Assembly (NCBI RefSeq): GCF_018771565.1
Contig: NZ_CP076326.1
Location: forward strand, 2,170,001 to 2,234,000
From: Thermoflexus hugenholtzii
GTDB taxonomy: Bacteria > Chloroflexota > Anaerolineae > Thermoflexales > Thermoflexaceae
Reading direction: 5' to 3'
DNA: 64,000 nt
A program made the translations under genes and the position numbers. The stretch's first letter is position 1, and each line of letters begins with the position of its first letter. This document shows positions 1,940-27,637 of the stretch, piece after piece. Under the pieces are notes generated by a model that saw only the letters and a list, made by a program, of their open reading frames with translations, had not been told where the DNA came from and did not search any database.

Positions 1940-3213
1940 AAGAAGGATGTTTTTCGGTCGGCGCATGCCGACCGCCGGCCGAAGGCTCTGCGCCGATTGC
2001 AATCGGCCTCTTCAGGCGCTGCGCGCCAGGCGTCGGCCTTCGCCGACGCGAAGGATTTTCCCGGTCGGCGCAGGCCGACCGTCGGCCGTAGGCCTCCGGA
2101 AGCCGAATTCATTCGGCACGCAGGCCGACCGCCGGCCGAAGGCTCTGCGCCGATTGAAATCGGCCTCTCAAGGCGCTGCACGCCAGGCGTCGGCCTCCGC
2201 CGACGCAAAGAACGCTTTCCCGGTCGGCGCAGGCCGACCATCGGCCGTAGGCCTCCGGAGGCCGAATTCATTCGGCACGCATGCCGACCGTCGGCCGAAG
2301 GCTCTGCGCCGATTGAAATCGGCCTCTCAAGGCGCTGCGCGCCAGGCGTCGGCCTCCGCCGACGCAAAGGGTTTTCTCGGTCGGCGCAGGCCGACCGTCG
2401 GCCGTAGGCCTCCGGAAGCCGAATTCATTCGGCACGCAGGCCGACCGCCGGCCGAAGGCTCTGCGCCGATTGGAAATCGGCCCTCCCAGGCGCTGCGCGC
2501 CGGGCGTCGGCCTCCGCCGACGCAAGACCCCTTCCCGGTCGGCGCAGGCCGACCGTCGGCCGTAGGCCTCCGGAGGCCGAATTCATTCGGCACGCATGCC
2601 GACCGCCGGCCGTAGGCTCTGCGCCGATTGAAATCGGCCTCTCAAGGCGCTGCGCGCCAGGCGTCGGCCCCGCCGACGCGAAGGGTTTTCCCGGTCGGCG
2701 CAGGCCGACCGTCGGCCGTAGGCCTCCGGAGGCCGAATTCATTCGGCACGCAGGCCGACCGCCGGCCGAAGGCTCTGCGCCGATTGAAATCGGCCTCTTA
2801 AGGCGCTGACGCGCCGGGCGTCGGCCTCCGCCGACGCGAAGGATTTTCTCGGTCGGCGCAGGCCGACCGTCGGCCGAAGGCCCCTGGAGGCCGAATTCAT
2901 TCGGCACGCATGCCGACCGCCGGCCGTAGGCTCTGCGCCGATTGAAATCGGCCTCTCAAGGCGCTGCGCGCCAGGCGTCGGCCTCCGCCGACGCAAAGAA
3001 CGCTTTCCCGGTCGGCGCAGGCCGACCGCCGGCCGTAGGCCTCCGGAGGCCGAATTCATTCGGCGTGCAGGCCAACCATCGGCCGAAGGCTCTGCGCCGA
3101 TTGAAATCGGCCTCTTCAGGCGCTGACGCGCCAGGCGTCGGCCTTCGCCGACGCGAAGGATTTTCCCGGTCGGCGCAGGCCGACCGTCGGCCGAAGGCCT
3201 CCGGAGGCCGAAT
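1940..3213. repeat. Tandem array of about eight 158-bp units made of consecutive palindromes
   Basis: The landmark GAATTC recurs at 2105, 2264, 2421, 2579, 2735, 2893, 3052 and 3210, a period of 156-159 bp. Each unit is a string of short hairpins: GGTCGGCGCAGGCCGACC, GGCCTCCGGAGGCC, GCCGAATTCATTCGGC, GCCGATTGAAATCGGC, GGCGCTGCGCGCC and GCGTCGGCCTCCGCCGACGC. The period is not a multiple of three, so the long open frames here are by-products of composition. The array begins at the stop codon of the Lon-like gene (3214) and lies 3' of it. A related array lies 3' of the lytic transglycosylase gene, in the same orientation relative to its gene. No coding region is seen in 1531-3213. Confidence 0.85.
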
Positions 3214-5685
3214 TCATTCGACGGACATGTTGCCGCCTCCAGCGTTGCCTCGCCCCTCCTCGCGGGCCTCGGGGGCCTTGCGCTCCCCTCGCTCCTCGCG
3301 GCCGAAGCGCTGCAGGGTCTCCGCCATCTCCCGGAGCCGCTGATCCACGCGCGCGTTGATCGTCCCCTCCGGATACCGGCCGTCGGGCCCGCGCTCCCCC
3401 GCGGGGATGCCGGTGAGGATCTCGATGGCCTCGTCAACGGTGCGGGCGGCCCAGATGTGGAACTTCCCCTCCCGCACCGCCTCGACGACCTCCTCCCGGA
3501 GCATCAGGTTGCGGACGTTGGCCTCGGGGATGATCACGCCCTGCTCCCCTGTGAGCCCCTTGACCTTGCACGTGTAGTAAAAGCCCTCGATCTTCTCGTT
3601 CACCCCCCCGATGGCCTGCAGCTCCCCCTTCTGGTTGATGGAGCCGGTGATGGCGATGCCCTGGCGGATGGGGACGTCGGCGAGGGCCGACAGCAGGGCG
3701 CACAGCTCCGCGCAGGAGGCGCTGTCGCCCTCCACCCCGGAATAGGACTGCTCGAAGACCAGGCGGGCGGAGAGGGTCAGCGGCTTGTCCTGGGCGTATT
3801 TGGAGGCCAGGTAGCCGCTGAGGATGAGGACGCCCTTGGTGTGGATGGGGCCGCCCAGGCGGGCTTCCCGCTCGATGTCGATCACCCCCTCCCGTCCCAG
3901 GGCGACGGTGGCGGTGATGCGGTTCGGCCGGCCGAAGCGATAGTCCCCCAGGTCCAGCACCGAGAGGCCGTTGACCTGGCCCACCTTCGCGCCCTCCACA
4001 TCGATGAGCAGGGTCCCCTCGGCGATCAGCTGGCGGATGCGCTCCTCGATGAGGTTGGAGCGATAGACCTTGGCCTCCAGGGCCTGGCGGACGTGCTCGG
4101 CGGTCACCAGGGGGGAGCCGGCCTTGCGGGCCCAGAAGCTGGCCTCCCGCACCAGGTCCGCCACCTCGGCGAAACGCGTGGAGAGGCGGGTCTGGTCCTC
4201 GGCCAGCCGCCCGCCGTATTCGATCACCCGGGCCACCGCCCCGGCGTCCAGATGGCACAGATCCTCCTTCCGGCAGAGGGTACCGATGAGGGCGATGTAA
4301 TCCCGCATCCCGTTCTCGTCCCAGGGCATCTCGATGTCGAAGTCGGCCTTCACCTTGAAGAGCTCGCTGAACTCCTCATCGTAGAGATACAGCAGGTGGT
4401 AGAGGAGCGGGCTGCCGATGAGGATGACCTTCACGTGAAGGGGGATGGGCTCGGGGTCCAGGGTGCGGGTGGTGAGCAACCCCATGCGCTCTCCGGGCTC
4501 CTCGATCTCGACGGCCCGCTGCCGCAGGGCGCGCTTGAGGCCCTCCCAGACGAAGGGGTTGACCAGAACCCCCTCCACGGGCATCACCAGGTAGCCTCCG
4601 TTGGCCCGGTGCAGCGCCCCGGCGCGGATCAGGGTGAAGTCGGTGTGCAGCACCCCGAGCAGGCTCTCCTTCTCCAGGCGGCCGAAGACGTTGGGGAAGG
4701 TGGGGTTCCACTCGATGATCACCGGGGCTCCCTGCTGCTCGGCGTTGTCCACCAGCACGTTCACGGTGTATTTGCGCAGGGCCAGATCCCCGAAGGCCGG
4801 CAGGGGGAGGGGGAAGGGAAGCCCCGGGGCACCCTCCTCGCGGCTCCGGAACTGGTCCACGTTCTCGACGATGTCCTCCTGCACCGCCTTGAGGTAGGCG
4901 ATCACCTCGGGGAGGTCCCGGTATTTCTCGAAGAGGTCGTCCATCAGCCCCTCGACCACGAAGAGGGCCACCTCCCGGTTCAGCCGGCGCAGCCGCTCCT
5001 GGGCGGCCCGCTCCAGCTGGCGGATCTCCTTGAGGGCCTGTTTGACCTCCTCTTCGAAGGCCTCCCGGCGGCGGCGGAGCAGCTCCTGCATGGCCGGAGG
5101 GAGAGCGGCGAACTGCTGGTCCGTGATGGGCCGTCCGCCCAGGAGGGGGATCACGGCGATGCCCATGGGGGTGACCTCCACCATCATCTCCTGAGCCATG
5201 GCCCGCTGGTTGAGGCGCCTGAGGATCTCCTCCCGCTGCTGGTTGATCTCCTTGAGGATGGCCTCGCGGCGGGCGTTGTATTCATCGCTTTCGAAGACGC
5301 GGGGGATCTCCCGGCGCACCCCCTCGATGAGCCGCTGCATGTCCCGTTGCAGCTCCCGGCCCCGGCCGGGCGGCAGGCGCAGGGCCCGCGGCCGGGAGGG
5401 GTCCTGGAAGTTGTAAACGTAGCACCAGTCGGGGGGCGTAGGCTGGTTTTTCGCCCGGGCCTCCAGGAACATCTGGACGCCGGTCATGCGGCCGACGCCG
5501 GGGGGACCGGCCACATAGATGTTGAAACCCTGGTCCGGGATGTCCAGCCCGAACTCCAGGGCGGCCACCGCCCGGGGCTGCCCGATCAGGCCGGCGAGGG
5601 GGGGATGCTCTTCGGTGGAGCGCAGCGGCAGGGTGTTCGGATCCACGGTGCGGCGCAGGGCCTCCGGCGGAAGGGAACGGGCCAT
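3214..5685 (-). CDS. Lon-like ATP-dependent protease (LonB/YcbZ type, AAA_32 plus Lon proteolytic domain)
   Basis: Predicted ATP-dependent serine protease of 823 aa. The N-terminal AAA region has AGPPGVGRMTGVQMF at about residues 58-72; the usual Walker A lysine position is Arg. A long helical insertion (about 130-290) is rich in Glu, Arg and Gln. The C-terminal Lon domain has GDSAS with the nucleophile at about Ser655, and VNEKIEGF with Lys at about 698. The 43-residue spacing matches the Lon Ser-Lys dyad. The start is supported by AGGAGG 9 nt upstream. It is the last gene of a minus-strand group (DUF2085, EamA, this gene). The stop codon is embedded in the edge of the palindromic array. There is no LonA N-terminal substrate domain. 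Confidence 0.9.
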   Translation of the reverse strand: MARSLPPEALRRTVDPNTLPLRSTEEHPPLAGLIGQPRAVAALEFGLDIPDQGFNIYVAGPPGVGRMTGVQMFLEARAKNQPTPPDWCYVYNFQDPSRPRALRLPPGRGRELQRDMQRLIEGVRREIPRVFESDEYNARREAILKEINQQREEILRRLNQRAMAQEMMVEVTPMGIAVIPLLGGRPITDQQFAALPPAMQELLRRRREAFEEEVKQALKEIRQLERAAQERLRRLNREVALFVVEGLMDDLFEKYRDLPEVIAYLKAVQEDIVENVDQFRSREEGAPGLPFPLPLPAFGDLALRKYTVNVLVDNAEQQGAPVIIEWNPTFPNVFGRLEKESLLGVLHTDFTLIRAGALHRANGGYLVMPVEGVLVNPFVWEGLKRALRQRAVEIEEPGERMGLLTTRTLDPEPIPLHVKVILIGSPLLYHLLYLYDEEFSELFKVKADFDIEMPWDENGMRDYIALIGTLCRKEDLCHLDAGAVARVIEYGGRLAEDQTRLSTRFAEVADLVREASFWARKAGSPLVTAEHVRQALEAKVYRSNLIEERIRQLIAEGTLLIDVEGAKVGQVNGLSVLDLGDYRFGRPNRITATVALGREGVIDIEREARLGGPIHTKGVLILSGYLASKYAQDKPLTLSARLVFEQSYSGVEGDSASCAELCALLSALADVPIRQGIAITGSINQKGELQAIGGVNEKIEGFYYTCKVKGLTGEQGVIIPEANVRNLMLREEVVEAVREGKFHIWAARTVDEAIEILTGIPAGERGPDGRYPEGTINARVDQRLREMAETLQRFGREERGERKAPEAREEGRGNAGGGNMSVE

Positions 5686-9047: not shown

Positions 9048-9103
9048 AAACCTTCCGCGGACCTCCATGGAAAATCCGGCCACCGGGGGTCCGCGGAAGG
9101 TTT
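9048..9103 (+). terminator. Long inverted repeat after the PLP gene, possible terminator
   Basis: AAACCTTCCGCGGACC (9048-9063) and GGTCCGCGGAAGGTTT (9088-9103) form a perfect 16-bp stem with a 24-nt loop, followed by ATAAAAT rather than a clean U-run. The core CTTCCGCGGACC recurs at 9216-9227 inside the leader, so the element may instead be a protein-binding site of the CRISPR leader. Confidence 0.5.
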
Positions 9104-9360
9104 ATAAAATGATCCCTTCGAACCCCTCTCTTCTCCCCCCATCCCCAACCATCCGCTTCCCTTTCGATCCGAAAAGATCCCTCCATAGGGATCTGATCCC
9201 ATGTTTCGGAAAAGGCTTCCGCGGACCCCCGTCGTCCCCACATCCGTGGAGAAGCCCGCACCCCTTGACAAACCGCACGATCGATGCTATATTTAGGGCG
9301 AACTGGATTTCCGAAGGGGGTTCTCTCTCCCTTCCCCCACTCACCCCCTGAAATCGCAGG
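9104..9360 (+). promoter_or_regulatory. CRISPR leader region
   Basis: Non-coding, locally less GC-rich stretch directly upstream of the first repeat. It contains a 7-bp-stem hairpin AGATCCC/GGGATCT (9175-9194), a third copy of CTTCCGCGGACC (9216-9227), the array promoter (9265-9293) and a pyrimidine-rich segment before the first repeat. Its position at the 5' end relative to the ATTGAAAC repeat end makes it the expected site of spacer integration. Confidence 0.75.
9265..9293 (+). promoter_or_regulatory. CRISPR array promoter
   Basis: TTGACA (9265-9270), 17 nt, TATATT (9288-9293): a near-consensus housekeeping-sigma promoter. Transcription would start near 9300, about 60 nt before the first repeat, and read through the array in the direction that gives crRNAs an AUUGAAAC 5' handle. 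Confidence 0.8.
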
Positions 9361-10135
9361 TCCTCAATCGAACCAGCGTGGGATTGAAACCGCAGCCTCT
9401 GTCGCCTGCGCGGCGGCCTCCTGCACCTTCCTCAATCGAACCAGCGTGGGATTGAAACACAGCGCGGGGATGGCGATGGATTCGTCGAGCAGCGATCCTC
9501 AATCGAACCAGCGTGGGATTGAAACCGAGATCATACGCCGGATGGCCCGGGCGCGGCGTCTGGGTCCTCAATCGAACCAGCGTGGGATTGAAACCCCTGG
9601 GCCGGGCGGCGCTGATTGTGATCTACCTCGCTCCTCAATCGAACCAGCGTGGGATTGAAACTCTGTCCCATCTCCCCCGCCCGCCGCGCCGCCGGCCCTC
9701 CTCAATCGAACCAGCGTGGGATTGAAACGTGGATGGAGGCGCTCTTGCAAAGGACAATCACCGACGATCCTCAATCGAACCAGCGTGGGATTGAAACCAT
9801 AATCTGCATCGCGGCACCTCCCTCACGATAGGGTCCTCAATCGAACCAGCGTGGGATTGAAACGAGCCAGAGTCCGTTCACCGGTTCCGCCTGGACGCCG
9901 TCCTCAATCGAACCAGCGTGGGATTGAAACGGTAGGTGATCTCAACCCGCCCTGGACGGACGACGAGTCCTCAATCGAACCAGCGTGGGATTGAAACCGC
10001 GGATTACCCCACCGCCTGCTCTTCCCGCTCGCGCTCCTCAATCGAACCAGCGTGGGATTGAAACATTGCCCACACGCGTGGTGCCGATGAATTGCCACAT
10101 CCTCAATCGAACCAGCGTGGGATTGAAACGGGGGC

Positions 10136-10165
10136 TTGTTTCGTTTGCGGTGGGCGTGATATAAT
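10136..10165 (+). promoter_or_regulatory. Promoter-like sequence inside a CRISPR spacer
   Basis: TTGTTT, 18 nt, TATAAT lie wholly within one spacer. It may be a captured phage promoter; if active it would start transcription inside the array. Confidence 0.4.
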
Positions 10166-13100
10166 CTCCTCAATCGAACCAGCGTGGGATTGAAACAATC
10201 GATAATGACGAGCGACACGTCGTTCTCCGCGACTCCTCAATCGAACCAGCGTGGGATTGAAACACGACGCCACTGCGGCCTTCGAGGCTGCAGTGGAGGT
10301 CCTCAATCGAACCAGCGTGGGATTGAAACGACTTATTCAGCACTCTGCTTCTCAACGAAGGAATTCTCCTCAATCGAACCAGCGTGGGATTGAAACGTCG
10401 TGTCGTTGACCGCGATGTCGTCAAACCATGCGCTCCTCAATCGAACCAGCGTGGGATTGAAACTACGGTTCAGGGGAGAGCAGATGGCGCATTGCGGATT
10501 CCTCAATCGAACCAGCGTGGGATTGAAACGCTCTTCCCGCTCGCGCACGTGGCGATAGATGAGCGTCCTCAATCGAACCAGCGTGGGATTGAAACGAAAG
10601 AGCGGGAGCTCAAGGAGAGAGAAGTCAAAGCGGTCCTCAATCGAACCAGCGTGGGATTGAAACCGCTGTCGGATGAGGTGAACGAGATCGTGGACAGCGC
10701 TCCTCAATCGAACCAGCGTGGGATTGAAACGGCAAAACAACTGGTTTGGCATTCGGGACGTGGTGAATCCTCAATCGAACCAGCGTGGGATTGAAACGCG
10801 TTCACTGATGCGCAGAGTCTGCTCGGTCTGGACACTCCTCAATCGAACCAGCGTGGGATTGAAACTGACCCTGGTCGTGGAGTGGGAGGCTGATACCAAC
10901 GTCCTCAATCGAACCAGCGTGGGATTGAAACGGATTGTGGGCTGGTGCCGGGAGCGCGGGGTGCCGGTTCCTCAATCGAACCAGCGTGGGATTGAAACAG
11001 CGAATCACGGCCTGGGAGAGCCGCTGGACATCCGGTCCTCAATCGAACCAGCGTGGGATTGAAACCACGAACAAGATAGATGCCGCCCGCCCAGAACAGG
11101 ATCCTCAATCGAACCAGCGTGGGATTGAAACCTTCGAAGGATAGGATCCCCAGTCGATACATTCGGCGCCTCAATCGAACCAGCGTGGGATTGAAACCTC
11201 CCAGGCCCTAAAGAGCCTTTGCCACCAAGGAATTCCTCAATCGAACCAGCGTGGGATTGAAACTTCATCGCCGACGAGAAGAGATCCCTGGCCGGAATGC
11301 TCCTCAATCGAACCAGCGTGGGATTGAAACGCCATTTCGCGCCTCCTTAGGTAGGTTTCCCGCCAGTCCTCAATCGAACCAGCGTGGGATTGAAACTTCC
11401 GGTCGTGTAGAGCTCGATGTGCCCCGCCGGGACTCTCCTCAATCGAACCAGCGTGGGATTGAAACGGCGCTCCTGTCTGTGGTTCTCAACCTTCTAAACC
11501 AGTCCTCAATCGAACCAGCGTGGGATTGAAACTGGTCCAGTTTCCCCAACCGTATGTCCTGGCGTCAAATCCTCAATCGAACCAGCGTGGGATTGAAACG
11601 GCTTTCTTCTCACTGATCTGCTGCAGCGCGCCAGGAATCCTCAATCGAACCAGCGTGGGATTGAAACCGACTTCCCAGCCCTCCCCTACGACGTATTCCA
11701 GCGCGTCCTCAATCGAACCAGCGTGGGATTGAAACCTGGCTGATGGACTGGGCCAGGCGGTTTGGCATCCCGTCCTCAATCGAACCAGCGTGGGATTGAA
11801 ACTGCACAGCAGCTGCTTTGCCAACCGGACCGCCTCCCGTCCTCAATCGAACCAGCGTGGGATTGAAACGTCCGAGTCCAATTCCTCCATCCTGGCTGTG
11901 GGAGGCTCCTCAATCGAACCAGCGTGGGATTGAAACTTAGGCCCCTACTTACTACGCCCTTATTATAGCGCCCTCCTCAATCGAACCAGCGTGGGATTGA
12001 AACCGATCACGGGCTTGTGCTGGGCAATGTAGGGCGCCACCTCAATCGAACCAGCGTGGGATTGAAACCTCCCAGATGGTGATGGACAAGCTGTATGAGC
12101 TGGCTCCTCAATCGAACCAGCGTGGGATTGAAACGGGCCATCTCATCCTTGGGCGAGAGGACGAGGAAGCGTCCTCAATCGAACCAGCGTGGGATTGAAA
12201 CCCCTTCTCGGGCTGGCGGGAAAAACTTGCTCGGGAATCCTCAATCGAACCAGCGTGGGATTGAAACAACGGTCGTTAGTTAGGTTTTTGGCCCAGGCCA
12301 AACGTTCCTCAATCGAACCAGCGTGGGATTGAAACTGTCGTGCACTACCGTTTCCCGGCCAGCCCCTGGTGGTCCTCAATCGAACCAGCGTGGGATTGAA
12401 ACTCGGACTTGGAAATTGGCCACTTGTTCCTCCGCAGCTCCTCAATCGAACCAGCGTGGGATTGAAACTGCTTTCTTGAGCAGCCCCCGAGCCAGCCGGA
12501 TGGCCTCCTCAATCGAACCAGCGTGGGATTGAAACGGTGTGGGCGGCTGGCCTGGCAGATTGGGCCAATCCTCCTCAATCGAACCAGCGTGGGATTGAAA
12601 CTATGACGCAACACGTCATATGGCTAAATCTCGAACATCCTCAATCGAACCAGCGTGGGATTGAAACTGCATCTCGCAGCGAACAGAATAGCACGTGAAC
12701 CACCTCCTCAATCGAACCAGCGTGGGATTGAAACTCCCGGCAGCAGCATAAGGCTTCCCGGCCAGATGGAGTCCTCAATCGAACCAGCGTGGGATTGAAA
12801 CGCGCGATCGCGTGGAGGACATCGGAGACTACATGCAGTCCTCAATCGAACCAGCGTGGGATTGAAACCAACCTCAACGAGTCGATACCCGTGGGGGACC
12901 TCAACAATCCTCAATCGAACCAGCGTGGGATTGAAACTCCACAAACCAACGAAGCGCACACCAACCAGGTGCAATCCTCAATCGAACCAGCGTGGGATTG
13001 AAACGCAGCTGCTCACGCAGCTGCTGCCGCTGGCTGTTCAATCCTCAATCGAACCAGCGTGGGATTGAAACATTGCGGAGCCGCTGCTGGCCGCCCGCCA

Positions 13101-16100
13101 GTGTGATAATCCTCAATCGAACCAGCGTGGGATTGAAACATAAACCGGGGAATCGGGGGGCTCCTCGCCTAAGCTGTCCTCAATCGAACCAGCGTGGGAT
13201 TGAAACTTGGGCTTGGAAGCTTGCGTAGGAGGTGAGTCGTGATCCTCAATCGAACCAGCGTGGGATTGAAACGAAAACGCCAACCACCCAATCGCAGTCG
13301 CCTTCCGCGATCCTCAATCGAACCAGCGTGGGATTGAAACTGGGGGAATGGCGGGCAAACCGGGGATCGAAGCGGATCCTCAATCGAACCAGCGTGGGAT
13401 TGAAACGGTGGTGGACAACCTCAAATACATCGCGGACAAGGTTCCTCAATCGAACCAGCGTGGGATTGAAACCGTTCCTCCGGAAGGTGGAATGTTACTT
13501 GAAGCGACTCCTCAATCGAACCAGCGTGGGATTGAAACAGGGTTTGTGTGGGTTGAGAGGGTTTGGAATCGGCGCTCCTCAATCGAACCAGCGTGGGATT
13601 GAAACTCTCGCTGGCGATTGACCTGGGCTGGCGGGATGGGCTCCTCAATCGAACCAGCGTGGGATTGAAACTTGAGGGGCCGGCGGGGTGATCCCCTGCC
13701 TGTCCTCTCCTCAATCGAACCAGCGTGGGATTGAAACGCGTCGGGGTGGACTGAGGGCTGATTGGTTGTCCGTTCCTCAATCGAACCAGCGTGGGATTGA
13801 AACGTAGGGCTGTGACGCATGGCGGCGCTTCGGTGGGCGGTCCTCAATCGAACCAGCGTGGGATTGAAACCTCTTTGTCATGAGCGAGGCGGATCACTTC
13901 TTCATCTTCCTCAATCGAACCAGCGTGGGATTGAAACGTGGGACTGGTGGCGCTGTTCCTGCTCACGCGAAAGCTCCTCAATCGAACCAGCGTGGGATTG
14001 AAACCTTCGGGGATGACGGAGAGGATCGTGGAACCTGACATCCTCAATCGAACCAGCGTGGGATTGAAACTTGTTTTGGGGGAAGGCATGAAGCGGATCC
14101 GGTTCATTCCTCAATCGAACCAGCGTGGGATTGAAACCCCAGTAGGGAACATCCGCAAACTCCACGGAGCCCTTTCCTCAATCGAACCAGCGTGGGATTG
14201 AAACCCCGCTTTCCGGGGCCACCGCGGAGCACATCCCCAGTCCTCAATCGAACCAGCGTGGGATTGAAACCTACCCGTCGCTCTTCCTCGCCCCGCAGGC
14301 CCCGGGAGCCTCAATCGAACCAGCGTGGGATTGAAACACGGAGGGTTAAAAAATGGCGCGGGAAACGAAAGTCGTCCTCAATCGAACCAGCGTGGGATTG
14401 AAACCGAGGTGCTGCGGTGGTGGAAGGCGCAGCACGGGATCGTCCTCAATCGAACCAGCGTGGGATTGAAACTCTTGAGATCCGGGGTTTCGGATTACAC
14501 GCTGTTGATTCCTCAATCGAACCAGCGTGGGATTGAAACCTCCGCATCCTCTGGGGACGCGGCAAACTTGCGGATCGTCCTCAATCGAACCAGCGTGGGA
14601 TTGAAACGGATGTGGCGGATGGCCTGGCCTTCGTGGCGCTGGATGTCCTCAATCGAACCAGCGTGGGATTGAAACAGTATGTGCGCTACGAGGGCGGCGT
14701 GCTGGACTTTCTCCTCAATCGAACCAGCGTGGGATTGAAACCCTGGAACCAGGGCTCATCCCGGTAGCTCATACGCCGTCCTCAATCGAACCAGCGTGGG
14801 ATTGAAACACCAGGTGGACCATGGGCGCAGAGGACACAATGGGGTCCTCAATCGAACCAGCGTGGGATTGAAACTCAGATCTGCAGCTGCGGCAGCCCGC
14901 ACCTGATTCATCCTCAATCGAACCAGCGTGGGATTGAAACCAGCTTGGCCGGGAGCGCCGATGGGATCACGCTGGGCTCCTCAATCGAACCAGCGTGGGA
15001 TTGAAACGCTGGAGGCCCAGCTGGAGCAGATCGGAAACGGACGGTCCTCAATCGAACCAGCGTGGGATTGAAACAGCGCCGCATGCGTTCCGGAGAGGGA
15101 CTCGATCAAAGTCCTCAATCGAACCAGCGTGGGATTGAAACGAACGTGATTCTCCTCCAGCCACTGCTGCCGACGGCTCCTCAATCGAACCAGCGTGGGA
15201 TTGAAACACTACATCCGCAAATTCTCAGATGCCCTGGGTCGCTGTCCTCAATCGAACCAGCGTGGGATTGAAACCGATGTGCGACTGGCTGGGATAGGTC
15301 CAGCCATTTACAATCCTCAATCGAACCAGCGTGGGATTGAAACGGAGTCGGGCGAGCCAGGGGAACTCTATTGTGCCCTTTCCTCAATCGAACCAGCGTG
15401 GGATTGAAACGTTGGCCAGGCGGGAAGGGAGGGGATTCGTGGAAATCTCCTCAATCGAACCAGCGTGGGATTGAAACCGGCAAAGGCGGATCCTGTCCAC
15501 CGTCCGGTCCACACTCCTCAATCGAACCAGCGTGGGATTGAAACCCGTTTGGCGTCAACACCGATCCGCTCGAGGAGATCGCTCCTCAATCGAACCAGCG
15601 TGGGATTGAAACAGCATCTTCGCGACATTTATGATGCCTTTGTGGAAGATCCTCAATCGAACCAGCGTGGGATTGAAACACGACATCTGGGAGACGCATC
15701 GCCCGCGCTCGTAGCGGTCCTCAATCGAACCAGCGTGGGATTGAAACAGGCGCAGCGGGCGTTTCGCCTGGCCACCCGGGAGCGTCCTCAATCGAACCAG
15801 CGTGGGATTGAAACCTGCTCCGGGCGAGTGGGGCTGTGGAAGAAGTCGTGGTCCTCAATCGAACCAGCGTGGGATTGAAACGAGGGACTTCGATATCGTC
15901 GTCTTCCGGATCGTTGAGTCCTCAATCGAACCAGCGTGGGATTGAAACGGCCAAACGGGGCCAGGCGAACGGATTTAGGCCCAATCCTCAATCGAACCAG
16001 CGTGGGATTGAAACCCACATACCCTCGTGTGGTGGCCATTATGAATTTCGATCCTCAATCGAACCAGCGTGGGATTGAAACTTAGACCATCCCGCGAGAA

Positions 16101-19100
16101 GCGGATGACCCACTCGTGGTCCTCAATCGAACCAGCGTGGGATTGAAACGACGGCTATCGACTCGTTGAGGTCGAAGCCTCGTGTGTCCTCAATCGAACC
16201 AGCGTGGGATTGAAACCTCAAGGAGAGCACCGGGGCAGTGGGCATGAGGGTGGTCCTCAATCGAACCAGCGTGGGATTGAAACCGGGCCGGGCGGGGCCG
16301 TCTCGCATCTCGAATACGTCCTCAATCGAACCAGCGTGGGATTGAAACGGGTGCGACAATCTACCTCCCGGTTGCCGGTGCGTCTTTCCTCAATCGAACC
16401 AGCGTGGGATTGAAACGGGGGACGCCGACGAGGACCTGGCGGGACAGCAGAATCCTCAATCGAACCAGCGTGGGATTGAAACGCAGGATCAGGATCAGCA
16501 CAATCACGGAGATCTGGAAGTCCTCAATCGAACCAGCGTGGGATTGAAACGGCCATATCAAAGCACCTCGATCACGGGCTTGTGCTGGTCCTCAATCGAA
16601 CCAGCGTGGGATTGAAACGGCACATCGTGGAACTGTTTGTCGACGGCGCGAACGGTCCTCAATCGAACCAGCGTGGGATTGAAACCCCATCCCAGCTCAT
16701 CCACCGAAGGTTTGCTTAAGGGTCCTCAATCGAACCAGCGTGGGATTGAAACGTTGGCGGAAAAGTATCGCTACCGGATCATCTCGAACTCCTCAATCGA
16801 ACCAGCGTGGGATTGAAACTACAGCGGCGCTTAGGTAACGGTCATGGGGGCACTTGTCCTCAATCGAACCAGCGTGGGATTGAAACCGGAACCCGCTCCC
16901 TGGAATGAGAGCGAAACCACCCTCCTCAATCGAACCAGCGTGGGATTGAAACCTGGTAAATCCAAAGCGGAAGCCCCACCAACTGCTCCATCCTCAATCG
17001 AACCAGCGTGGGATTGAAACGGGGGGCTGTCTGGGTCGGCTATGCGGTCTGGCTGATCTCCTCAATCGAACCAGCGTGGGATTGAAACAAAGCGCCCGAA
17101 GGACCGCCGAAGACCAGTTGTAAAGTCCTCAATCGAACCAGCGTGGGATTGAAACTAGGAACACGCGTCGTAGTGAAGACCATCGTGGGAAATCCTCAAT
17201 CGAACCAGCGTGGGATTGAAACTTGGGACGGGGACCTATTCGGTTAGCGTTCCATACCGTCCTCAATCGAACCAGCGTGGGATTGAAACCACCGACGTCG
17301 GCGTCGGGGATGGTTCTGCACAAACAATCCTCAATCGAACCAGCGTGGGATTGAAACAGTTAAACGAAGGGAAAATCGTAATCGCTGCGGAGGGTCCTCA
17401 ATCGAACCAGCGTGGGATTGAAACCTCCGTCCTCCCATAAGCAGGAGGGGGAATCCTGGGCAGTCCTCAATCGAACCAGCGTGGGATTGAAACTAAGGGA
17501 GGTGGTCGATGAAGGTAATCGGGCTCTTGATCCTCAATCGAACCAGCGTGGGATTGAAACGATGTTACCCCGCTTCATCCTTTGGCCCCTGGTCCGTCCT
17601 CAATCGAACCAGCGTGGGATTGAAACCAATAACTTTCAGATCGTTGCGGATGAGACGACAGCTCCTCAATCGAACCAGCGTGGGATTGAAACCCCCGCTC
17701 ACGATGAACGTCGGCAGGCCCGCATACTGTCCTCAATCGAACCAGCGTGGGATTGAAACGCCAAACTGCGACGCCGCTGGGAGAGCCTGAATCGGCTCCT
17801 CAATCGAACCAGCGTGGGATTGAAACCCTGCCAGTCCGGCAGGAACGCCGCGAGCGCATTGGCGATCCTCAATCGAACCAGCGTGGGATTGAAACCACCG
17901 AGACCGTCGGGATGTCCGGCGTGGACATCACCTCCTCAATCGAACCAGCGTGGGATTGAAACCACCGAGACCGTCGGGATGTCCGGCGTGGACATCACCT
18001 CCTCAATCGAACCAGCGTGGGATTGAAACTCGACGGCCTGGAACGAGATGGGCGCGATCCGTTTGGCCTCAATCGAACCAGCGTGGGATTGAAACCATCG
18101 TGGTCGTTGAAGTGGATGCTCGGCTCAAAAACTCCTCAATCGAACCAGCGTGGGATTGAAACTAAACGCTGTGCGGGGCGGGGAGGTTCTTGCCGTCCAT
18201 CCTCAATCGAACCAGCGTGGGATTGAAACGCTGGACTTTCTGATGGATCGTGCAGGTCTTCCAATTTCCTCAATCGAACCAGCGTGGGATTGAAACCAAT
18301 TTCCGACTCGGTCGGGTAGGTCCAGCCATTGACCTCAATCGAACCAGCGTGGGATTGAAACTGACGTTCGTCCTGGGAGGGATCTGGAAGACGGTGGCTC
18401 CTCAATCGAACCAGCGTGGGATTGAAACTGCTGAAGATGCTGAAGGCGATCAGGACCCTTCGCGGTCCTCAATCGAACCAGCGTGGGATTGAAACGATAT
18501 TGCCACTGCGCCAGCTCGGAGAGGTAAGCGCTGTCCTCAATCGAACCAGCGTGGGATTGAAACCGGTAGCACCGGACGCGCCCGCGCCAGCATCACGGCT
18601 CCTCAATCGAACCAGCGTGGGATTGAAACACGTGCCCTCCCTAAGCTCGCATTTGAGCTCGTTGTGTCCTCAATCGAACCAGCGTGGGATTGAAACATGC
18701 GTGATACCCGCCCCCATGCCAGGGGATGCGGGCGTCCTCAATCGAACCAGCGTGGGATTGAAACTTGTCGAGATTATCAAGGGCCTGGAGTGCCGGATCC
18801 TGTCCTCAATCGAACCAGCGTGGGATTGAAACATCAGCGCCCAGTACACCGCCGGCAGCGACACAAAGAATCCTCAATCGAACCAGCGTGGGATTGAAAC
18901 ATCAGCGCCCAGTACACCGCCGGCAGCGACACAAAGAATCCTCAATCGAACCAGCGTGGGATTGAAACCGTGATCCTGGTCCACAACCTTGGCGAGACGG
19001 AGATCTCCTCAATCGAACCAGCGTGGGATTGAAACTTCATCGACTACGGACTGGGGGACACGGTCACCGTGTTCCTCAATCGAACCAGCGTGGGATTGAA

Positions 19101-20439
19101 ACAGGAAGGCCCCAACCTCACGCCCGAGCAGAAGCGAAATCCTCAATCGAACCAGCGTGGGATTGAAACGGGGGCGCGATGAGCGAGCGGATGGCGTGCC
19201 TGATCGTCCTCAATCGAACCAGCGTGGGATTGAAACGGAGAACGCTTACGACGTCTCCTTCTATGCCCAGCTGTCCTCAATCGAACCAGCGTGGGATTGA
19301 AACGAATACCGCGGGCCTTCTTTTCGCTGACCTGGACAAGTCCTCAATCGAACCAGCGTGGGATTGAAACGCGACAGCACGCGCGCGATGGCCTCGAGGT
19401 CCCCGCGTCCTCAATCGAACCAGCGTGGGATTGAAACTTCATCAAGCACGGGGAGCTGGCGGAAAGGTGGGGTTCCTCAATCGAACCAGCGTGGGATTGA
19501 AACATTGTTCCGACAATGGAATACGAGGGGGAAGCAACGCTCCTCAATCGAACCAGCGTGGGATTGAAACTTCACCATTCAGGTTCATCGAGATAGCGGC
19601 TCAATCCTCCTCAATCGAACCAGCGTGGGATTGAAACAGGAAGTAGTCCAGGCCCTCCTATCTGCAATCGAGGTCCTCAATCGAACCAGCGTGGGATTGA
19701 AACAAATCATCCGGCCCCACAGCGGATCAAACCGCTCCTTCCTCAATCGAACCAGCGTGGGATTGAAACCGCCAAAGCCGGCCTTCTCGAACATCGAGGC
19801 CCTGGCTCCTCAATCGAACCAGCGTGGGATTGAAACTTAGCCGGATCACCCGGCCAGGTTCCATCTGCACAAATCCTCAATCGAACCAGCGTGGGATTGA
19901 AACTCCACCCGGACAACAACTTGCCCGAAAGCATTAAACATCCTCAATCGAACCAGCGTGGGATTGAAACCAGAATCAGGGGTATAATGGGGGGCGGAAA
20001 ACCTGGTCCTCAATCGAACCAGCGTGGGATTGAAACTTGGCGGGCTGCACCAGCCCGGCGCGCTGAGCAAGGTTCCTCAATCGAACCAGCGTGGGATTGA
20101 AACGATCTTTCGCCAGGCGCGCCGCTTCCGCGATGGCCTTCCTCAATCGAACCAGCGTGGGATTGAAACACACGTTCAAGAAGTTCATCCCCGGCCTGCA
20201 GGAGGTTCCTCAATCGAACCAGCGTGGGATTGAAACCAGTCTGCAGGTGGAGATCGCTTAATTCGCTCAATGATCCTCAATCGAACCAGCGTGGGATTGA
20301 AACCTTCAGGATGTAGTGGGCCCGCTGGCGGGAGACGCCGTCCTCAATCGAACCAGCGTGGGATTGAAACCTTTCCTCCAGAAGGCAGTTCGGTATTTGA
20401 GGTCACAATCCTCAATCGAACCAGCGTGGGATTGAAACA

Positions 20440-20469
20440 TTGACAAGCAATTGCGAATTGCGCTACAAT
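20440..20469 (+). promoter_or_regulatory. Promoter-like sequence inside a second CRISPR spacer
   Basis: TTGACA, 18 nt, TACAAT inside one spacer, in the same direction as the array. It has a consensus -35 and a five-of-six -10, so it is a stronger candidate than most chance matches in DNA this rich in GC. Confidence 0.45.
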
Positions 20470-22308
20470 GGAATTGTCCTCAATCGAACCAGCGTGGGAT
20501 TGAAACTCCGGCAGATCGCCCTGGGGGGCTTCCTCTGGATGGCTCCTCAATCGAACCAGCGTGGGATTGAAACCGTAAAACGTGGCGGCGCTGGCGTCGT
20601 TATCCAGCATTCCTCAATCGAACCAGCGTGGGATTGAAACCTTCTCGTAGGCGACGAAGATGGCCACAGCGAAGGCCTCCTCAATCGAACCAGCGTGGGA
20701 TTGAAACTTGTTAGCGGACAACACCACCCCGCTCTGGCTCCACTCCTCAATCGAACCAGCGTGGGATTGAAACACGGCCCGGAGGGCTGGCGCGTGGTGG
20801 GCAAGCAGTTCCTCAATCGAACCAGCGTGGGATTGAAACTGAGTTTCGTTTCCTTTATCCATATTACGACTATCCATCCTCAATCGAACCAGCGTGGGAT
20901 TGAAACCAATCACGCCCGGCAGGGCGTCCCAGGGGACCTCCCGGTCCTCAATCGAACCAGCGTGGGATTGAAACGTGCGGCATCGACGACGAGCGGATCG
21001 TCGTTGATCATCCTCAATCGAACCAGCGTGGGATTGAAACGGTGATGGAGGAGCTGGCCAAGAACGGTCTCACGGCCTCCTCAATCGAACCAGCGTGGGA
21101 TTGAAACCAGCAAGGGGGGATCAAAAATGCGTGGGAAGCGGATCTCCTCAATCGAACCAGCGTGGGATTGAAACCTGAGACGGGAAAAGCGGGAGGATGG
21201 TTTCCCGCAGTCCTCAATCGAACCAGCGTGGGATTGAAACAAAACGCGATCGAGCGGGCTTACGCTAAAGGCAAGATTCCTCAATCGAACCAGCGTGGGA
21301 TTGAAACAGGCGAAAGCGATCGCGCTAAATTACGTCGTTACTTCTCCTCAATCGAACCAGCGTGGGATTGAAACACAACAGGAGGTGCGGCATGACGCTG
21401 GCGGATTTCTTCCTCAATCGAACCAGCGTGGGATTGAAACGATCGCCGCCCGCGGAAGAGCCCTTCAGCACCACCTTCCTCAATCGAACCAGCGTGGGAT
21501 TGAAACCGTCGTGCTGATCGCGCCGGCGATCGCGCGATAGGTCTCCTCAATCGAACCAGCGTGGGATTGAAACGCTACATCGGTTCATCGTTTCCTTTCT
21601 GAAGGCCTTTCCTCAATCGAACCAGCGTGGGATTGAAACGGAAGACCGCCAACCAGCCGCGGATCCTGAGCCCAAGTCCTCAATCGAACCAGCGTGGGAT
21701 TGAAACAGTACTCCCCGATACGCCGATTCCATACTCGTTCTATCCTCAATCGAACCAGCGTGGGATTGAAACCGGGAATGGGGCATCTTCGGGGGCGATG
21801 CCGAACTTCGTCCTCAATCGAACCAGCGTGGGATTGAAACCAAGCCCCGCCGACGGAGGTCTCGCTCTTTGTAAAGGGTCCTCAATCGAACCAGCGTGGG
21901 ATTGAAACGCCTTCTTTCGCTTCATCGCGATTCACCTCCTTTCCGTCCTCAATCGAACCAGCGTGGGATTGAAACGTCAAGGACCTCAAGGCCCATCTCC
22001 GCGCGCTGGAGTCCTCAATCGAACCAGCGTGGGATTGAAACCGTCGTCGTTTTCTGCGTCGAGGAGCAAATAGAGCGGTCCTCAATCGAACCAGCGTGGG
22101 ATTGAAACGCGAGTCCATCTCGCGCACGAACGCGTCCAGATTCTCTCCTCAATCGAACCAGCGTGGGATTGAAACCGAGATCCTGACGCGCCTGGAACGC
22201 ATAGAAGACAAGTCCTCAATCGAACCAGCGTGGGATTGAAACTTTTGATCCCCTCCCTTTCTGGATTCTGGCAATTGATCCTCAATCGAACCAGCGTGGG
22301 ATTGAAAC

Positions 22309-22684
22309 CTTCGATTTGATCGTTCTCCTGGCGTGCACGGATAAGGTTCCTCAATCGAACCAGCGTGGGATTGAAACGCTACTGACGTCCTGGGCGTTCA
22401 GATTCCAGACGTCATCCTCAATCGAACCAGCGTGGGATTGAAACGCGGCTGGTCGGGCTCTATGAGGCGCGCAATGGAGAGTCCTCAATCGAACCAGCGT
22501 GGGATTGAAACCTTCGATTTGATCGTTCTCCTGGCGTGCACGGATAAGGTTCCTCAATCGAACCAGCGTGGGATTGAAACGCTACTGACGTCCTGGGCGT
22601 TCAGATTCCAGACGTCATCCTCAATCGAACCAGCGTGGGATTGAAACGCGGCTGGTCGGGCTCTATGAGGCGCGCAATGGAGAG
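22309..22684 (+). repeat. Tandem duplication of three spacers within the array
   Basis: The spacers starting CTTCGATTTG, GCTACTGACG and GCGGCTGGTC occur in the same order at 22309 and again from 22512, so three spacer-repeat units were duplicated in tandem, presumably by recombination between repeats. Single-spacer tandem duplications are also present at about 17896/17962 and 18831/18900. Confidence 0.95.
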
Positions 22685-24394
22685 TCCTCAATCGAACCAG
22701 CGTGGGATTGAAACCACTTCATCCGGCACAACAGGCGAGTGTTTACACCACGATCCTCAATCGAACCAGCGTGGGATTGAAACGGCGGATCGGGCTGTTA
22801 CGGTGTTCGAGAATACTGTTCCTCAATCGAACCAGCGTGGGATTGAAACACGAGGGAGTACGAGGGGGAGGCGACTCCGACCCCTCTCCTCAATCGAACC
22901 AGCGTGGGATTGAAACGGGGGTAGGGGTCGGAGCCGGGGTCAGGAACGGGGTCGTCCTCAATCGAACCAGCGTGGGATTGAAACTGTGGCGTTGGAAGTC
23001 AAGAAGCAGGTAGAGGATAGGTCCTCAATCGAACCAGCGTGGGATTGAAACTGGCGTCCTGGATATGGTGAAGGCAATTGTGGTCATTTCCTCAATCGAA
23101 CCAGCGTGGGATTGAAACGCAGGCGCGTCTTGCCGGCTGGGCAACACGCCTATGCCGTCCTCAATCGAACCAGCGTGGGATTGAAACTAAACTCCACGAT
23201 CTCGTTGCCGTCCTCAGCCGGATCTCCTCAATCGAACCAGCGTGGGATTGAAACAAAACCAGCCGGGTGAAGGCCTGGCTGACGGATTTGTCCTCAATCG
23301 AACCAGCGTGGGATTGAAACTGGGTTCACTTGACGGTAGCGACATATCTGAAACTGCTCCTCAATCGAACCAGCGTGGGATTGAAACCGGACCCTGATAC
23401 CCAACCGCTCTTCCACCCTCCTCTCCTCAATCGAACCAGCGTGGGATTGAAACCACTCAAGCCAATCAGGATCACGGGACCAACCCGCCCTCCTCAATCG
23501 AACCAGCGTGGGATTGAAACTCTATCCCACCGCCGTCTTCACTACGACTCGCGTTCCCTCCTCAATCGAACCAGCGTGGGATTGAAACCACTTTTGCGTT
23601 CTCGTTCGTCAGCACCAGCATCTCATTCCTCAATCGAACCAGCGTGGGATTGAAACTGGACGATGGGCGGGAATGAATACGGCCAGTAGGCCTCTCCTCA
23701 ATCGAACCAGCGTGGGATTGAAACCAGTAGGGCTCCGCATAGATCCGAACATCCTCCCCGTTCCTCAATCGAACCAGCGTGGGATTGAAACGACGGTTGG
23801 ACGTGGGGCCCTCCCATCCCCGGGCAGGTCCTCAATCGAACCAGCGTGGGATTGAAACCCGCCCGCCCGGGAGCCGCAGCCGCAGCCCATCCGTTCCTCA
23901 ATCGAACCAGCGTGGGATTGAAACCCTTCACGAACAGGGCCTCCTCGATCGCGGAGAGAAGTCCTCAATCGAACCAGCGTGGGATTGAAACTCCCGGTCC
24001 CGATGGTGGAGGCGCTCGCGAAGGCAATTCCTCAATCGAACCAGCGTGGGATTGAAACCCGGGCTCCTCACCTGCGCCGAAACGATCTCCACCATCCTCA
24101 ATCGAACCAGCGTGGGATTGAAACTCAGCTGTGGAAAACTTGCTACCACTGCAAATTCAAATCCTCAATCGAACCAGCGTGGGATTGAAACCGATTAGCG
24201 CCAATCGGGAGCTACGAAGGGAGCGCGTCCTCAATCGAACCAGCGTGGGATTGAAACCCTGCATGCGCCTGCCACCGAATTCTCGTCACTGGTCGCGTCC
24301 TCAATCGAACCAGCGTGGGATTGAAACGCTGGGAGAACGCCTGGCGGACCGACTCCACGATCTGTCCTCAATCGAACCAGCGTGGGATTGAAAC

Positions 24395-25093
24395 GGCGGC
24401 TCGCGAGGTTCTCCACGGCGGATATCAGCGTCCTCAATCGAACCAGCGTGGGATTGAAACAACGTTAAAGGAAAGTCGCCAAACGTTAAAGGATTCTCCT
24501 CAATCGAACCAGCGTGGGATTGAAACTCCCGGACTTCGGCGAGCGAAGAAGCGGGAAAAACGTCCTCAATCGAACCAGCGTGGGATTGAAACGTTTTGAT
24601 TGTCATTGCAGGCTTGACGGTGCTCTACATCCTCAATCGAACCAGCGTGGGATTGAAACCGCAATCATGCGATCGCGTGCCTCCGCGAGATACCGGCCTC
24701 AATCGAACCAGCGTGGGATTGAAACCGGATTCATTGAGCACCTTCAGTGCCCGCAGGATCCATCCTCAATCGAACCAGCGTGGGATTGAAACTTATCGCG
24801 GGCGATGTTGATCACCTCATCGCCCACCGCCTCAATCGAACCAGCGTGGGATTGAAACTGAAGAGGCGCGGAGGATGTGGATAACCGGCGAGCTGCCCTC
24901 AATCGAACCAGCGTGGGATTGAAACGGCGGCTCGCGAGGTTCTCCACGGCGGATATCAGCGTCCTCAATCGAACCAGCGTGGGATTGAAACAACGTTAAA
25001 GGAAAGTCGCCAAACGTTAAAGGATTCTCCTCAATCGAACCAGCGTGGGATTGAAACTCCCGGACTTCGGCGAGCGAAGAAGCGGGAAAAACG
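24395..25093 (+). repeat. Dispersed duplication of a three-spacer block
   Basis: Block 24395-24562 (spacers starting GGCGGCTCGC, AACGTTAAAG, TCCCGGACTT) recurs identically at 24926-25093, about 530 bp away. The three repeats following the copied spacers have T as first base, whereas their neighbours in the second location mostly have G or C. This indicates copying from the T-type zone into the G-type zone. Confidence 0.93.
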
Positions 25094-27637
25094 TCCTCAA
25101 TCGAACCAGCGTGGGATTGAAACGGAGGAGATCTACCGCCATCTGGCGCCCTACATCGCCCTCAATCGAACCAGCGTGGGATTGAAACCGCAGCGCTTCC
25201 GCTTCCTCCGCACGAAGCGCCGCGCCTCAATCGAACCAGCGTGGGATTGAAACTGGATTACGTTCGAACATGCGGGGGGCAATCGTGATGCCTCAATCGA
25301 ACCAGCGTGGGATTGAAACCCTAACACCGGGGCCCGCGGCGCGGTCATCCGCGACGCCTCAATCGAACCAGCGTGGGATTGAAACGGGCGCGGCGCGAGA
25401 GGCCTGTCCTTCGCTCCAATGTCCTCAATCGAACCAGCGTGGGATTGAAACATTCCAGACCCGTTCGACCCACACGAATCCCAGCCCCCCTCAATCGAAC
25501 CAGCGTGGGATTGAAACGTGCGCTTGGGGGCTCCGGCGTGGGCGATCCGGGTGGCCTCAATCGAACCAGCGTGGGATTGAAACCGCGGTAGACCTCGACC
25601 GCGCGGGAGTATTTGTCGACCCTCAATCGAACCAGCGTGGGATTGAAACCGCGATCATGCGATCGCGGGCCTCCCCGACGTAGCGGGCCTCAATCGAACC
25701 AGCGTGGGATTGAAACGAAGGCCCGGTCGGCCAGCTGAGAGCGCTTGAAGTAAGCCTCAATCGAACCAGCGTGGGATTGAAACGGGGATGCGGGCCACAA
25801 ACTCCCACTTGACGGCCTGGGCCTCAATCGAACCAGCGTGGGATTGAAACGTGAGCAGCTCCAGTTCCGGGAAGGGCGCGAACTTCGCCTCAATCGAACC
25901 AGCGTGGGATTGAAACTTGTTGAAGGAGCGAAAGTTCAGGTGCAGCGGGGAGAGCCTCAATCGAACCAGCGTGGGATTGAAACTCTATCTGCTCTTCTTT
26001 GCTCGGCGCCGGCGGGGGGCCTCAATCGAACCAGCGTGGGATTGAAACTTCTCGTCCTTCGGCGAGATGACGAGATACCGGGGGGCCTCAATCGAACCAG
26101 CGTGGGATTGAAACGATGATATCGATCAGGTGATGGGCTTCCGCATCCAGGCCTCAATCGAACCAGCGTGGGATTGAAACTGCTCATCGGCGGTGAGAGG
26201 GTCTTGGGGATTCTCGAGGCCTCAATCGAACCAGCGTGGGATTGAAACTCAGAAAGCCGATGATAAACCGGTGAAGATGATACTTGCCTCAATCGAACCA
26301 GCGTGGGATTGAAACTTCAGCTGGCCGGGGTGCGACAATCTCCCGCCCGGAGCCTCAATCGAACCAGCGTGGGATTGAAACGGATCCGGACCCTCAGCAC
26401 AGTTCCGTCCTTCTTGCAGCCTCAATCGAACCAGCGTGGGATTGAAACGATCGCCGGCCGGGACGGCCACCACCGACGGCAGAAGGCCTCAATCGAACCA
26501 GCGTGGGATTGAAACAGGAACCAGCAAGTATCGCCCTCCGCGGCTACGACGCCTCAATCGAACCAGCGTGGGATTGAAACTGGAGTGTGTAGACCAGGGC
26601 GCGGCGCGAGAGGCCCGTGCCTCAATCGAACCAGCGTGGGATTGAAACAAACGAGCATATCCGGGATGCCGGTGTGCTTTGTGGCCTCAATCGAACCAGC
26701 GTGGGATTGAAACCGCATCCGGCATCGCTTATCCTCCCAGTGCTGGAGTAGCCTCAATCGAACCAGCGTGGGATTGAAACAGGGCGGCCTGGAAGGGGGA
26801 CAGGTAGATGGGAATCGAGGCCTCAATCGAACCAGCGTGGGATTGAAACGTGTTTTCCAATGAAGGCGGCCAGGTCCTCCAAGGGGGAGCCTCAATCGAA
26901 CCAGCGTGGGATTGAAACAGCCAATGGCAGTGAGATCCACCGACGGCGGGAACCAGCCTCAATCGAACCAGCGTGGGATTGAAACAATCGTGTCCAGGGG
27001 AGAGATACATTGCACCGCCAGAGCCTCAATCGAACCAGCGTGGGATTGAAACCAGTATGTGAACCACCGAGGGGAAGGTGTTTGGTAGCCGCCTCAATCG
27101 AACCAGCGTGGGATTGAAACTAGCTTCCGAGCGGGATCGCGCGATACCGAGGAACCAGGCCTCAATCGAACCAGCGTGGGATTGAAACGCGGGGGCGGCG
27201 GCGGCGGGATCACGGGAAGATACCCGCCTCAATCGAACCAGCATGGGATTGAAACCCCGGCCGGGACGCTGAGGATCTCGAATCCCTCCAGCGCCTCAAT
27301 CGAACCAGCGTGGGATTGAAACTCGGAGGTCGGGCTGCAGCAGAACGAATACGTCTTCCGCCTCAATCGAACCAGCGTGGGATTGAAACTGGGACCTGGC
27401 CAGGGTAAAAGCCCTGATACAGACGAGCCTCAATCGAACCAGCGTGGGATTGAAACCGAGCTAGATCAAAGCGGGCAAGCGCGCGAGGAGGAATGCTCCG
27501 AGGACAGAGGGCGAGAATCGGAAGAGGCGCCGCATGCCGGAACCCCTTATCCGTCGTGCTCCCCGGCCCGGAAGCGCACCGGGAGAACGACGACCGAACC
27601 CGCCTCTAAGATACCACACGAACGATTCGGGACGGGC

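What the first reader, a model, noticed from the sequence alone, without database searches (positions are those of the whole stretch)
9361..27456. One of the larger CRISPR arrays: 271 near-identical repeats in 18.1 kb
Hand count along the sequence gives 271 repeats and 270 spacers with no insertion or degraded repeat in the interior. Few single arrays are this long, and such length implies very active acquisition with strong constraint on the repeat. The distal repeats are as well conserved as the proximal ones, apart from the first base.
Basis: seen in the sequence. Interest (0 to 1): 0.72.

Follow-up and report, generated by a model that had tools for sequence, protein, structure and literature searches.

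The report
Long CRISPR array logging integration slips
A hot-spring bacterium (genus Thermoflexus) carries an ordinary but long immune-memory array of 270 spacers; the one variable base at the edge of its repeats records how the spacer-inserting enzyme occasionally, and for a while consistently, cut one base off register.

Summary
In detail: 271 copies of a 29-nt core repeat (270 exact) at 9361-27456, with 270 spacers (262 distinct; four small spacer duplications were missed). It is the larger of two same-repeat arrays in a complete Thermoflexus chromosome. Subtype I-B is by linkage (a T. japonica contig carries this repeat and the I-B cas1) and a deduced CCN PAM. 271 repeats is large, but the published maximum is 587 spacers. 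Repeat uniformity follows from copying and does not by itself show constraint. The "first base" is the interesting part. From old to new it runs G (27 repeats), mixed G/C/T (15), then T with five isolated exceptions. Mixed-zone units and exceptions are one base shorter (65.9 against 67.0 nt). Where another spacer overlaps the same protospacer, the base is the protospacer's in 4 of 5 mixed or exceptional cases and 0 of 14 regular ones. I infer a leader-side integration site anchored on the leader end (CTGAAATCGCAGG|), so junction indels or slips change the copied unit (29, 30 or 31 nt). The sister array shows 30/31-nt eras. The system is known; the natural record of register changes is the new part.

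The parts
9062..9360 (+). CRISPR leader; last 13 bases CTGAAATCGCAGG (9348-9360) identical in all eight Thermoflexus leaders compared
   Evidence: 98% identical to the leader of the sister array; leader alignment and leader ends
9265..9293 (+). sigma-70-like promoter TTGACA-17-TATATT, probably for the array transcript
   Evidence: consensus scan, 11 of 12 matches, 0.1 expected; similar elements in related leaders
9361..27456 (+). CRISPR array: 271 repeats, 270 spacers; oldest end at 27456
9361..24659 (+). T zone (newest): repeats 1-229, 30-nt unit T+core, with non-T base before the core at 11168 (G), 12039 (A), 14308 (G), 18066 (G), 18332 (A)
24696..25649 (+). mixed zone: repeats 230-244, base before the core G/C/T, units one base shorter; includes duplicated block (spacers 233-235 = 225-227)
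25687..27456 (+). G zone (oldest): repeats 245-271, 30-nt unit G+core
27227..27255 (+). repeat 268, the only core repeat with a substitution (G to A at 27243)

Best explanation
A type I-B CRISPR array of a Thermoflexus chromosome, filled in order from the leader side, most likely by the genome's I-B Cas4-Cas1-Cas2 set encoded elsewhere on the chromosome. The leader-side cut is set by the leader end (CTGAAATCGCAGG|); the far cut is set from inside the repeat. The unit copied at each acquisition is whatever lies between: 30 nt (G + core) at first; then, after loss of the junction base, 29 nt for about a dozen acquisitions, in which the base before the core came from the incoming spacer; then 30 nt again with T at the junction. 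With T at position 1 the cut slipped by one base in at least 5 of 228 acquisitions. Shown: the zones, the unit lengths, agreement of slipped bases with protospacers, leader conservation, and linkage of this repeat to I-B cas1 in a sister species. Inferred: the leader anchor, the junction deletion and later T gain, and the cause of slipping.
For: Base zones and exceptions. Slipped units average 65.94 nt against 66.98 for the rest; none of 200,000 random draws was as low. Assuming 29-nt copies there and 30-nt elsewhere makes spacer length equal in all zones, 36.8-37.0 nt. From overlapping spacers the array base equals the protospacer base in 4 of 5 mixed or exceptional units and 0 of 14 regular units of this array, Fisher P 0.0013. 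Leader end identical in eight leaders while the junction is T here, GG in the sister array and G elsewhere. Sister array shows runs of G two before the core that come and go, matching 31/30-nt units. G at the junction: 0 non-G in 665; T: 5 non-T in 228. Repeat linked to the I-B cas1 on a T. japonica contig. CCN flank.
Against: Only five informative protospacer tests exist for slipped units and one fails (A242, a weak 13-nt overlap); two of the four that agree rest on diverged homologues and two are reciprocal. In the sister array the length shift between eras is +0.49 nt instead of 1, because spacers 50-66 are unexpectedly long. In L061 the base two before the core is C in nine of the first ten repeats without longer units. 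No leader with the junction base missing has been seen.
Confidence: 0.78

Rival explanations
1. Ordinary copied mutations: the first base of the leader-proximal repeat changed by several substitutions, and each was copied into later repeats.
For: Copied mutations do occur: the last repeat base switches sharply in the sister array and in T. tengchongensis, and the base before the core switches G-C-G in L058.
Against: About ten changes at one site within some 12 acquisitions would be needed, against 2 changes in 27,664 core sites. The five exceptions are not copied onward. It does not predict shorter units or agreement with protospacers.
Confidence: 0.08
2. The base before the core always comes from the incoming spacer, and T or G is a sequence preference of prespacer processing, as reported from memory for a 3' motif in Pyrococcus furiosus.
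For: The position is far more variable than the core.
Against: In regular units of this array the array base never equals the protospacer base (0 of 14); units are one base longer than in the mixed zone.
Confidence: 0.03
3. The zones come from recombination or an assembly join between two arrays, one with T and one with G.
For: Three spacers (225-227) recur at 233-235 next to the mixed zone, and two arrays with this repeat exist in the genome.
Against: A join gives one switch, not many alternations, and does not shorten twelve units. No spacer is shared with the sister array. Flanks are collinear with a relative.
Confidence: 0.06

Closest known systems
Haloarcula hispanica type I-B adaptation (Wang et al. 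2016; original not held, read through PMC9458426)
   Same: I-B Cas1; 30-nt repeat with AACC(C) and GTGGG inside; first three repeat bases matter for adaptation and the two motifs dictate integration sites. The present repeat holds GAACCAGCGTGGG at similar positions.
   Different: That work used engineered repeats in an archaeon; here natural one-base changes are read from arrays of a bacterium. Not tested biochemically here.
Streptococcus thermophilus type II-A integration (PMC6895254)
   Same: First site set at the leader-repeat junction with G1 favouring it; second site set by a ruler in the repeat; insertions upstream of the ruler keep the leader-side cut and change repeat length.
   Different: Type II-A, engineered targets, 36-nt repeat.
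CRISPR arrays of other Thermoflexus genomes (L053, L055-L069)
   Same: Same core repeat and, where seen, the same leader end; arrays A and B lie at loci orthologous to L066 and L065.
   Different: 68-95 repeats in those seen whole; mostly uniform G before the core; no identical spacers shared between genomes.
Longest reported array, Haliangium ochraceum DSM 14365 (587 spacers, PMC7145573)
   Same: Single very long CRISPR array.
   Different: More than twice as long; different organism; its repeat was not compared.

Membership tests
CRISPR array | near-identical direct repeats separated by unique spacers of similar length | tested here: met
   271 repeats, 262 distinct spacers of 270, period 65-70
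CRISPR array | leader at one end with a promoter | tested here: met
   conserved leader and promoter match; transcription not tested
CRISPR array | spacers derived from mobile elements | tested here: inconclusive
   no match in phage, plasmid or viral collections as far as searched; overlapping spacers with a common CCN flank imply common outside sources
CRISPR-Cas type I-B | I-B cas genes (cas8b, cas7, cas5, cas3, cas1) in the genome | tested here: met
   locus at about 1,264-1,281 kb
CRISPR-Cas type I-B | array adjacent to the I-B cas genes | tested here: inconclusive
   not adjacent in this genome; in T. japonica the same-repeat array and the I-B cas1 are about 3 kb apart
CRISPR-Cas type I-B | PAM on the 5' side of protospacers | tested here: met
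   CCN flank in most strong spacer overlaps
CRISPR-Cas type III-A of the same genome | array with this repeat at the csm locus | tested here: not met
   the csm locus carries 15 copies of an unrelated repeat; use of these crRNAs by the III-A complex is not excluded
Leader-anchored first site plus internal ruler (H. hispanica, S. thermophilus) | junction indels change the copied unit length | tested here: inconclusive
   clear in this array, partial in the sister array, absent in L061

The most novel reading that the evidence does not exclude
Natural type I-B arrays keep a time-ordered record of single-base changes in the register of the spacer integrase: the leader-side cut is anchored on the leader, so junction indels switch the copied repeat between 29, 30 and 31 nt for whole eras, and the identity of the first repeat base sets the slip rate (T at least 2%, G under 0.5%).
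Probability: 0.7. Interest if true: 0.55.

Novelty: new member of a known kind. Interest (0 to 1): 0.42.

Why it matters
The array itself is a further long I-B array. Its value is as a natural experiment: hundreds of acquisitions in order show how the leader-repeat junction fixes the copied unit and how often the cut slips, a question so far addressed mainly with engineered repeats. The approach (base zones, unit length, and overlapping spacers as stand-in protospacers) needs no virus sequence and can be applied to any set of long arrays.

Tried and rejected
BLAST of the array against phage records (covering 9391-25390) and plasmid records (covering 9391-17390) gave only chance-level hits; the remaining stretches were not run. 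Five exact scans of viral contigs with cores shared between spacers found nothing, so PAM and protospacer bases were read from overlapping spacers. Rfam found nothing in the window. None of the window ORFs scanned was a cas gene, and neither cas1 lies in the window; not every ORF was scanned. An early idea that a leader deletion specific to this array shifted the cut was dropped: related leaders show that the sister array has an extra G. Wang et al. 2016 is not held. Self-targeting by spacers was not tested.

Full report
Observation. The window holds 271 copies of CCTCAATCGAACCAGCGTGGGATTGAAAC at 9362-27456, all on the + strand; 270 are exact and repeat 268 has one substitution. The 270 spacers have periods of 65-70 nt and 262 are distinct; duplicated ones are 128/129, 142/143, 194-196/197-199 and 225-227/233-235.

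Setting. The window is positions 2,170,001-2,234,000 of a single-contig genome of 3,316,678 bases. Same-genus genomes with the same repeat are Thermoflexus (T. tengchongensis, T. japonica, unnamed MAGs). A second array of 100 repeats lies at 1,099,232-1,105,957 on the - strand; its leader is 98% identical over 328 nt. The cas genes found are elsewhere: around 1,264-1,281 kb two I-B effector modules, a Csx1 and one cas4-cas1-cas2 set; around 781-791 kb a III-A locus with its own cas1, a Cas6 and an unrelated repeat. On one T. japonica contig the present repeat (2984 to about 9300) and the I-B cas1 (12265-13257) lie about 3 kb apart. The array locus is orthologous to an 85-repeat array in another Thermoflexus genome, with flanks 91-95% identical and no identical spacers.

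Leader. Eight leaders from four genomes share the end CTGAAATCGCAGG, followed by the junction base(s) and the core. The junction is T here, GG in the sister array and G in the other six. A TTGACA-17-TATATT promoter match lies at 9265-9293. Within each genome the two leaders resemble each other more (88-98%) than those of other species (64-74%).

The base before the core. From oldest to newest it is G in 27 repeats, G/C/T mixed in repeats 244-230, then T, with single exceptions at repeats 28 (G), 41 (A), 75 (G), 131 (G) and 135 (A). Repeats 234-236 belong to a duplicated block and were left out of the tests. Across 11 array stretches, positions 1-28 of the core differ from consensus twice in 27,664 sites, so this one position behaves differently. 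The sister array gives an internal control: its last repeat base changes C to T once, sharply, in the newest nine repeats, which is what a copied mutation looks like.

Unit length. Mean period is 67.00 in T-type units, 66.93 in G-type units, 66.00 in the 12 independent mixed-zone units and 65.80 at the five exceptions. Pooled, the 17 slipped units average 65.94 against 66.98; no random draw of 200,000 was as low. If the copied repeat is 29 nt in slipped units and 30 nt elsewhere, spacers average 36.8-37.0 nt throughout.

Protospacer test. No virus matched, but some of the 1003 Thermoflexus spacers overlap, so one spacer shows what flanked another's protospacer. For regular T- or G-type units of this array the array base was never the protospacer base (0 of 14). 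For exceptions it was in 2 of 2, and for mixed-zone units in 2 of 3. Fisher P for 4 of 5 against 0 of 14 is 0.0013. Pairs 229/244 and 134/89 are diverged homologues and 40/236 are reciprocal, so this is good but not overwhelming evidence. The same overlaps give the 5' flank CCN in most strong cases, a type I-like PAM.

Sister array. Its second base before the core is G in repeats 1-32 (one exception, C at 20), random in 33-66, G in 67-79 and random in 80-100. Under background composition the run of 13 has P about 1e-7 and the 31 of 32 about 5e-16. This reads as alternation between 31- and 30-nt copied units, and the present leader does carry the extra G. Unit lengths agree only in part (+0.49 nt, P 0.019) because spacers 50-66 are unusually long; this is unexplained. 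In L061 the base two before the core is C in nine of the first ten repeats without longer units; also unexplained.

Mechanism. The simplest account is a leader-anchored first cut after GCAGG and a second cut measured from inside the repeat; whatever lies between is copied. Junction indels are then inherited by every later unit, giving eras, while single slips affect one unit only. T at the junction shows 5 visible slips in 228 acquisitions, G none in 665 (P 0.001). This agrees with published work on H. hispanica I-B (first three nucleotides and the AACCC/GTGGG anchors, PMC9458426) and S. thermophilus II-A (first site at the junction, G1, ruler for the second site, PMC6895254). The order of leader changes (loss of G, later gain of T) is inferred, not seen.

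Assessment. The finding as submitted is true but ordinary: a long array of probable I-B origin, about half the published maximum of 587 spacers. Uniform repeats follow from copying. The zone structure is a modest new insight into integration fidelity, well supported for this array and partly for its sister. Two literature searches found no report of such eras in natural arrays, but only open-licence papers were searched.

Noticed in passing
window 1962-3220: Tandem array of a 158-nt GC-rich unit, 8 copies, 91% matches; similar sequence occurs downstream in the window and in T. japonica and T. tengchongensis contigs. Function unknown.
   Followed up: partly
G000:C1 about 1264000-1281000 (L021, L022): Two I-B effector modules (Cas7/Cas5/Cas3, then Cas8b/Cas7/Cas5/Cas3) in tandem with a Csx1-like CARF-HEPN protein and a single cas4-cas1-cas2 set.
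   Followed up: partly
window 9062-9360 and related leaders: Leaders hold a spaced inverted pair GGGGGTCCGCGGAAGG / CTTCCGCGGACCCCC, largely conserved across species; possible binding site. The two leaders of one genome are more alike than leaders of different species.
   Followed up: partly
array B (L016/L017), spacers 50-66: Units average 68.2 nt, about a base longer than neighbouring 30-nt-type units; no cause found.
   Followed up: partly
L061, first ten repeats: Base two before the core is C in nine of ten, then random, without longer units.
   Followed up: no
L058, repeats 64-66: A 60-nt unit coincides with switches C to G before the core and C to T at the last repeat base; suggests recombination or a chimeric MAG contig.
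   Followed up: no
G000:C1:779816-780955 (L019): III-A locus array of 15 copies of repeat GTCGCAATCCCCTGAGAACGGGTCTCGGCTCTGCAAG, with one repeated spacer.
   Followed up: no
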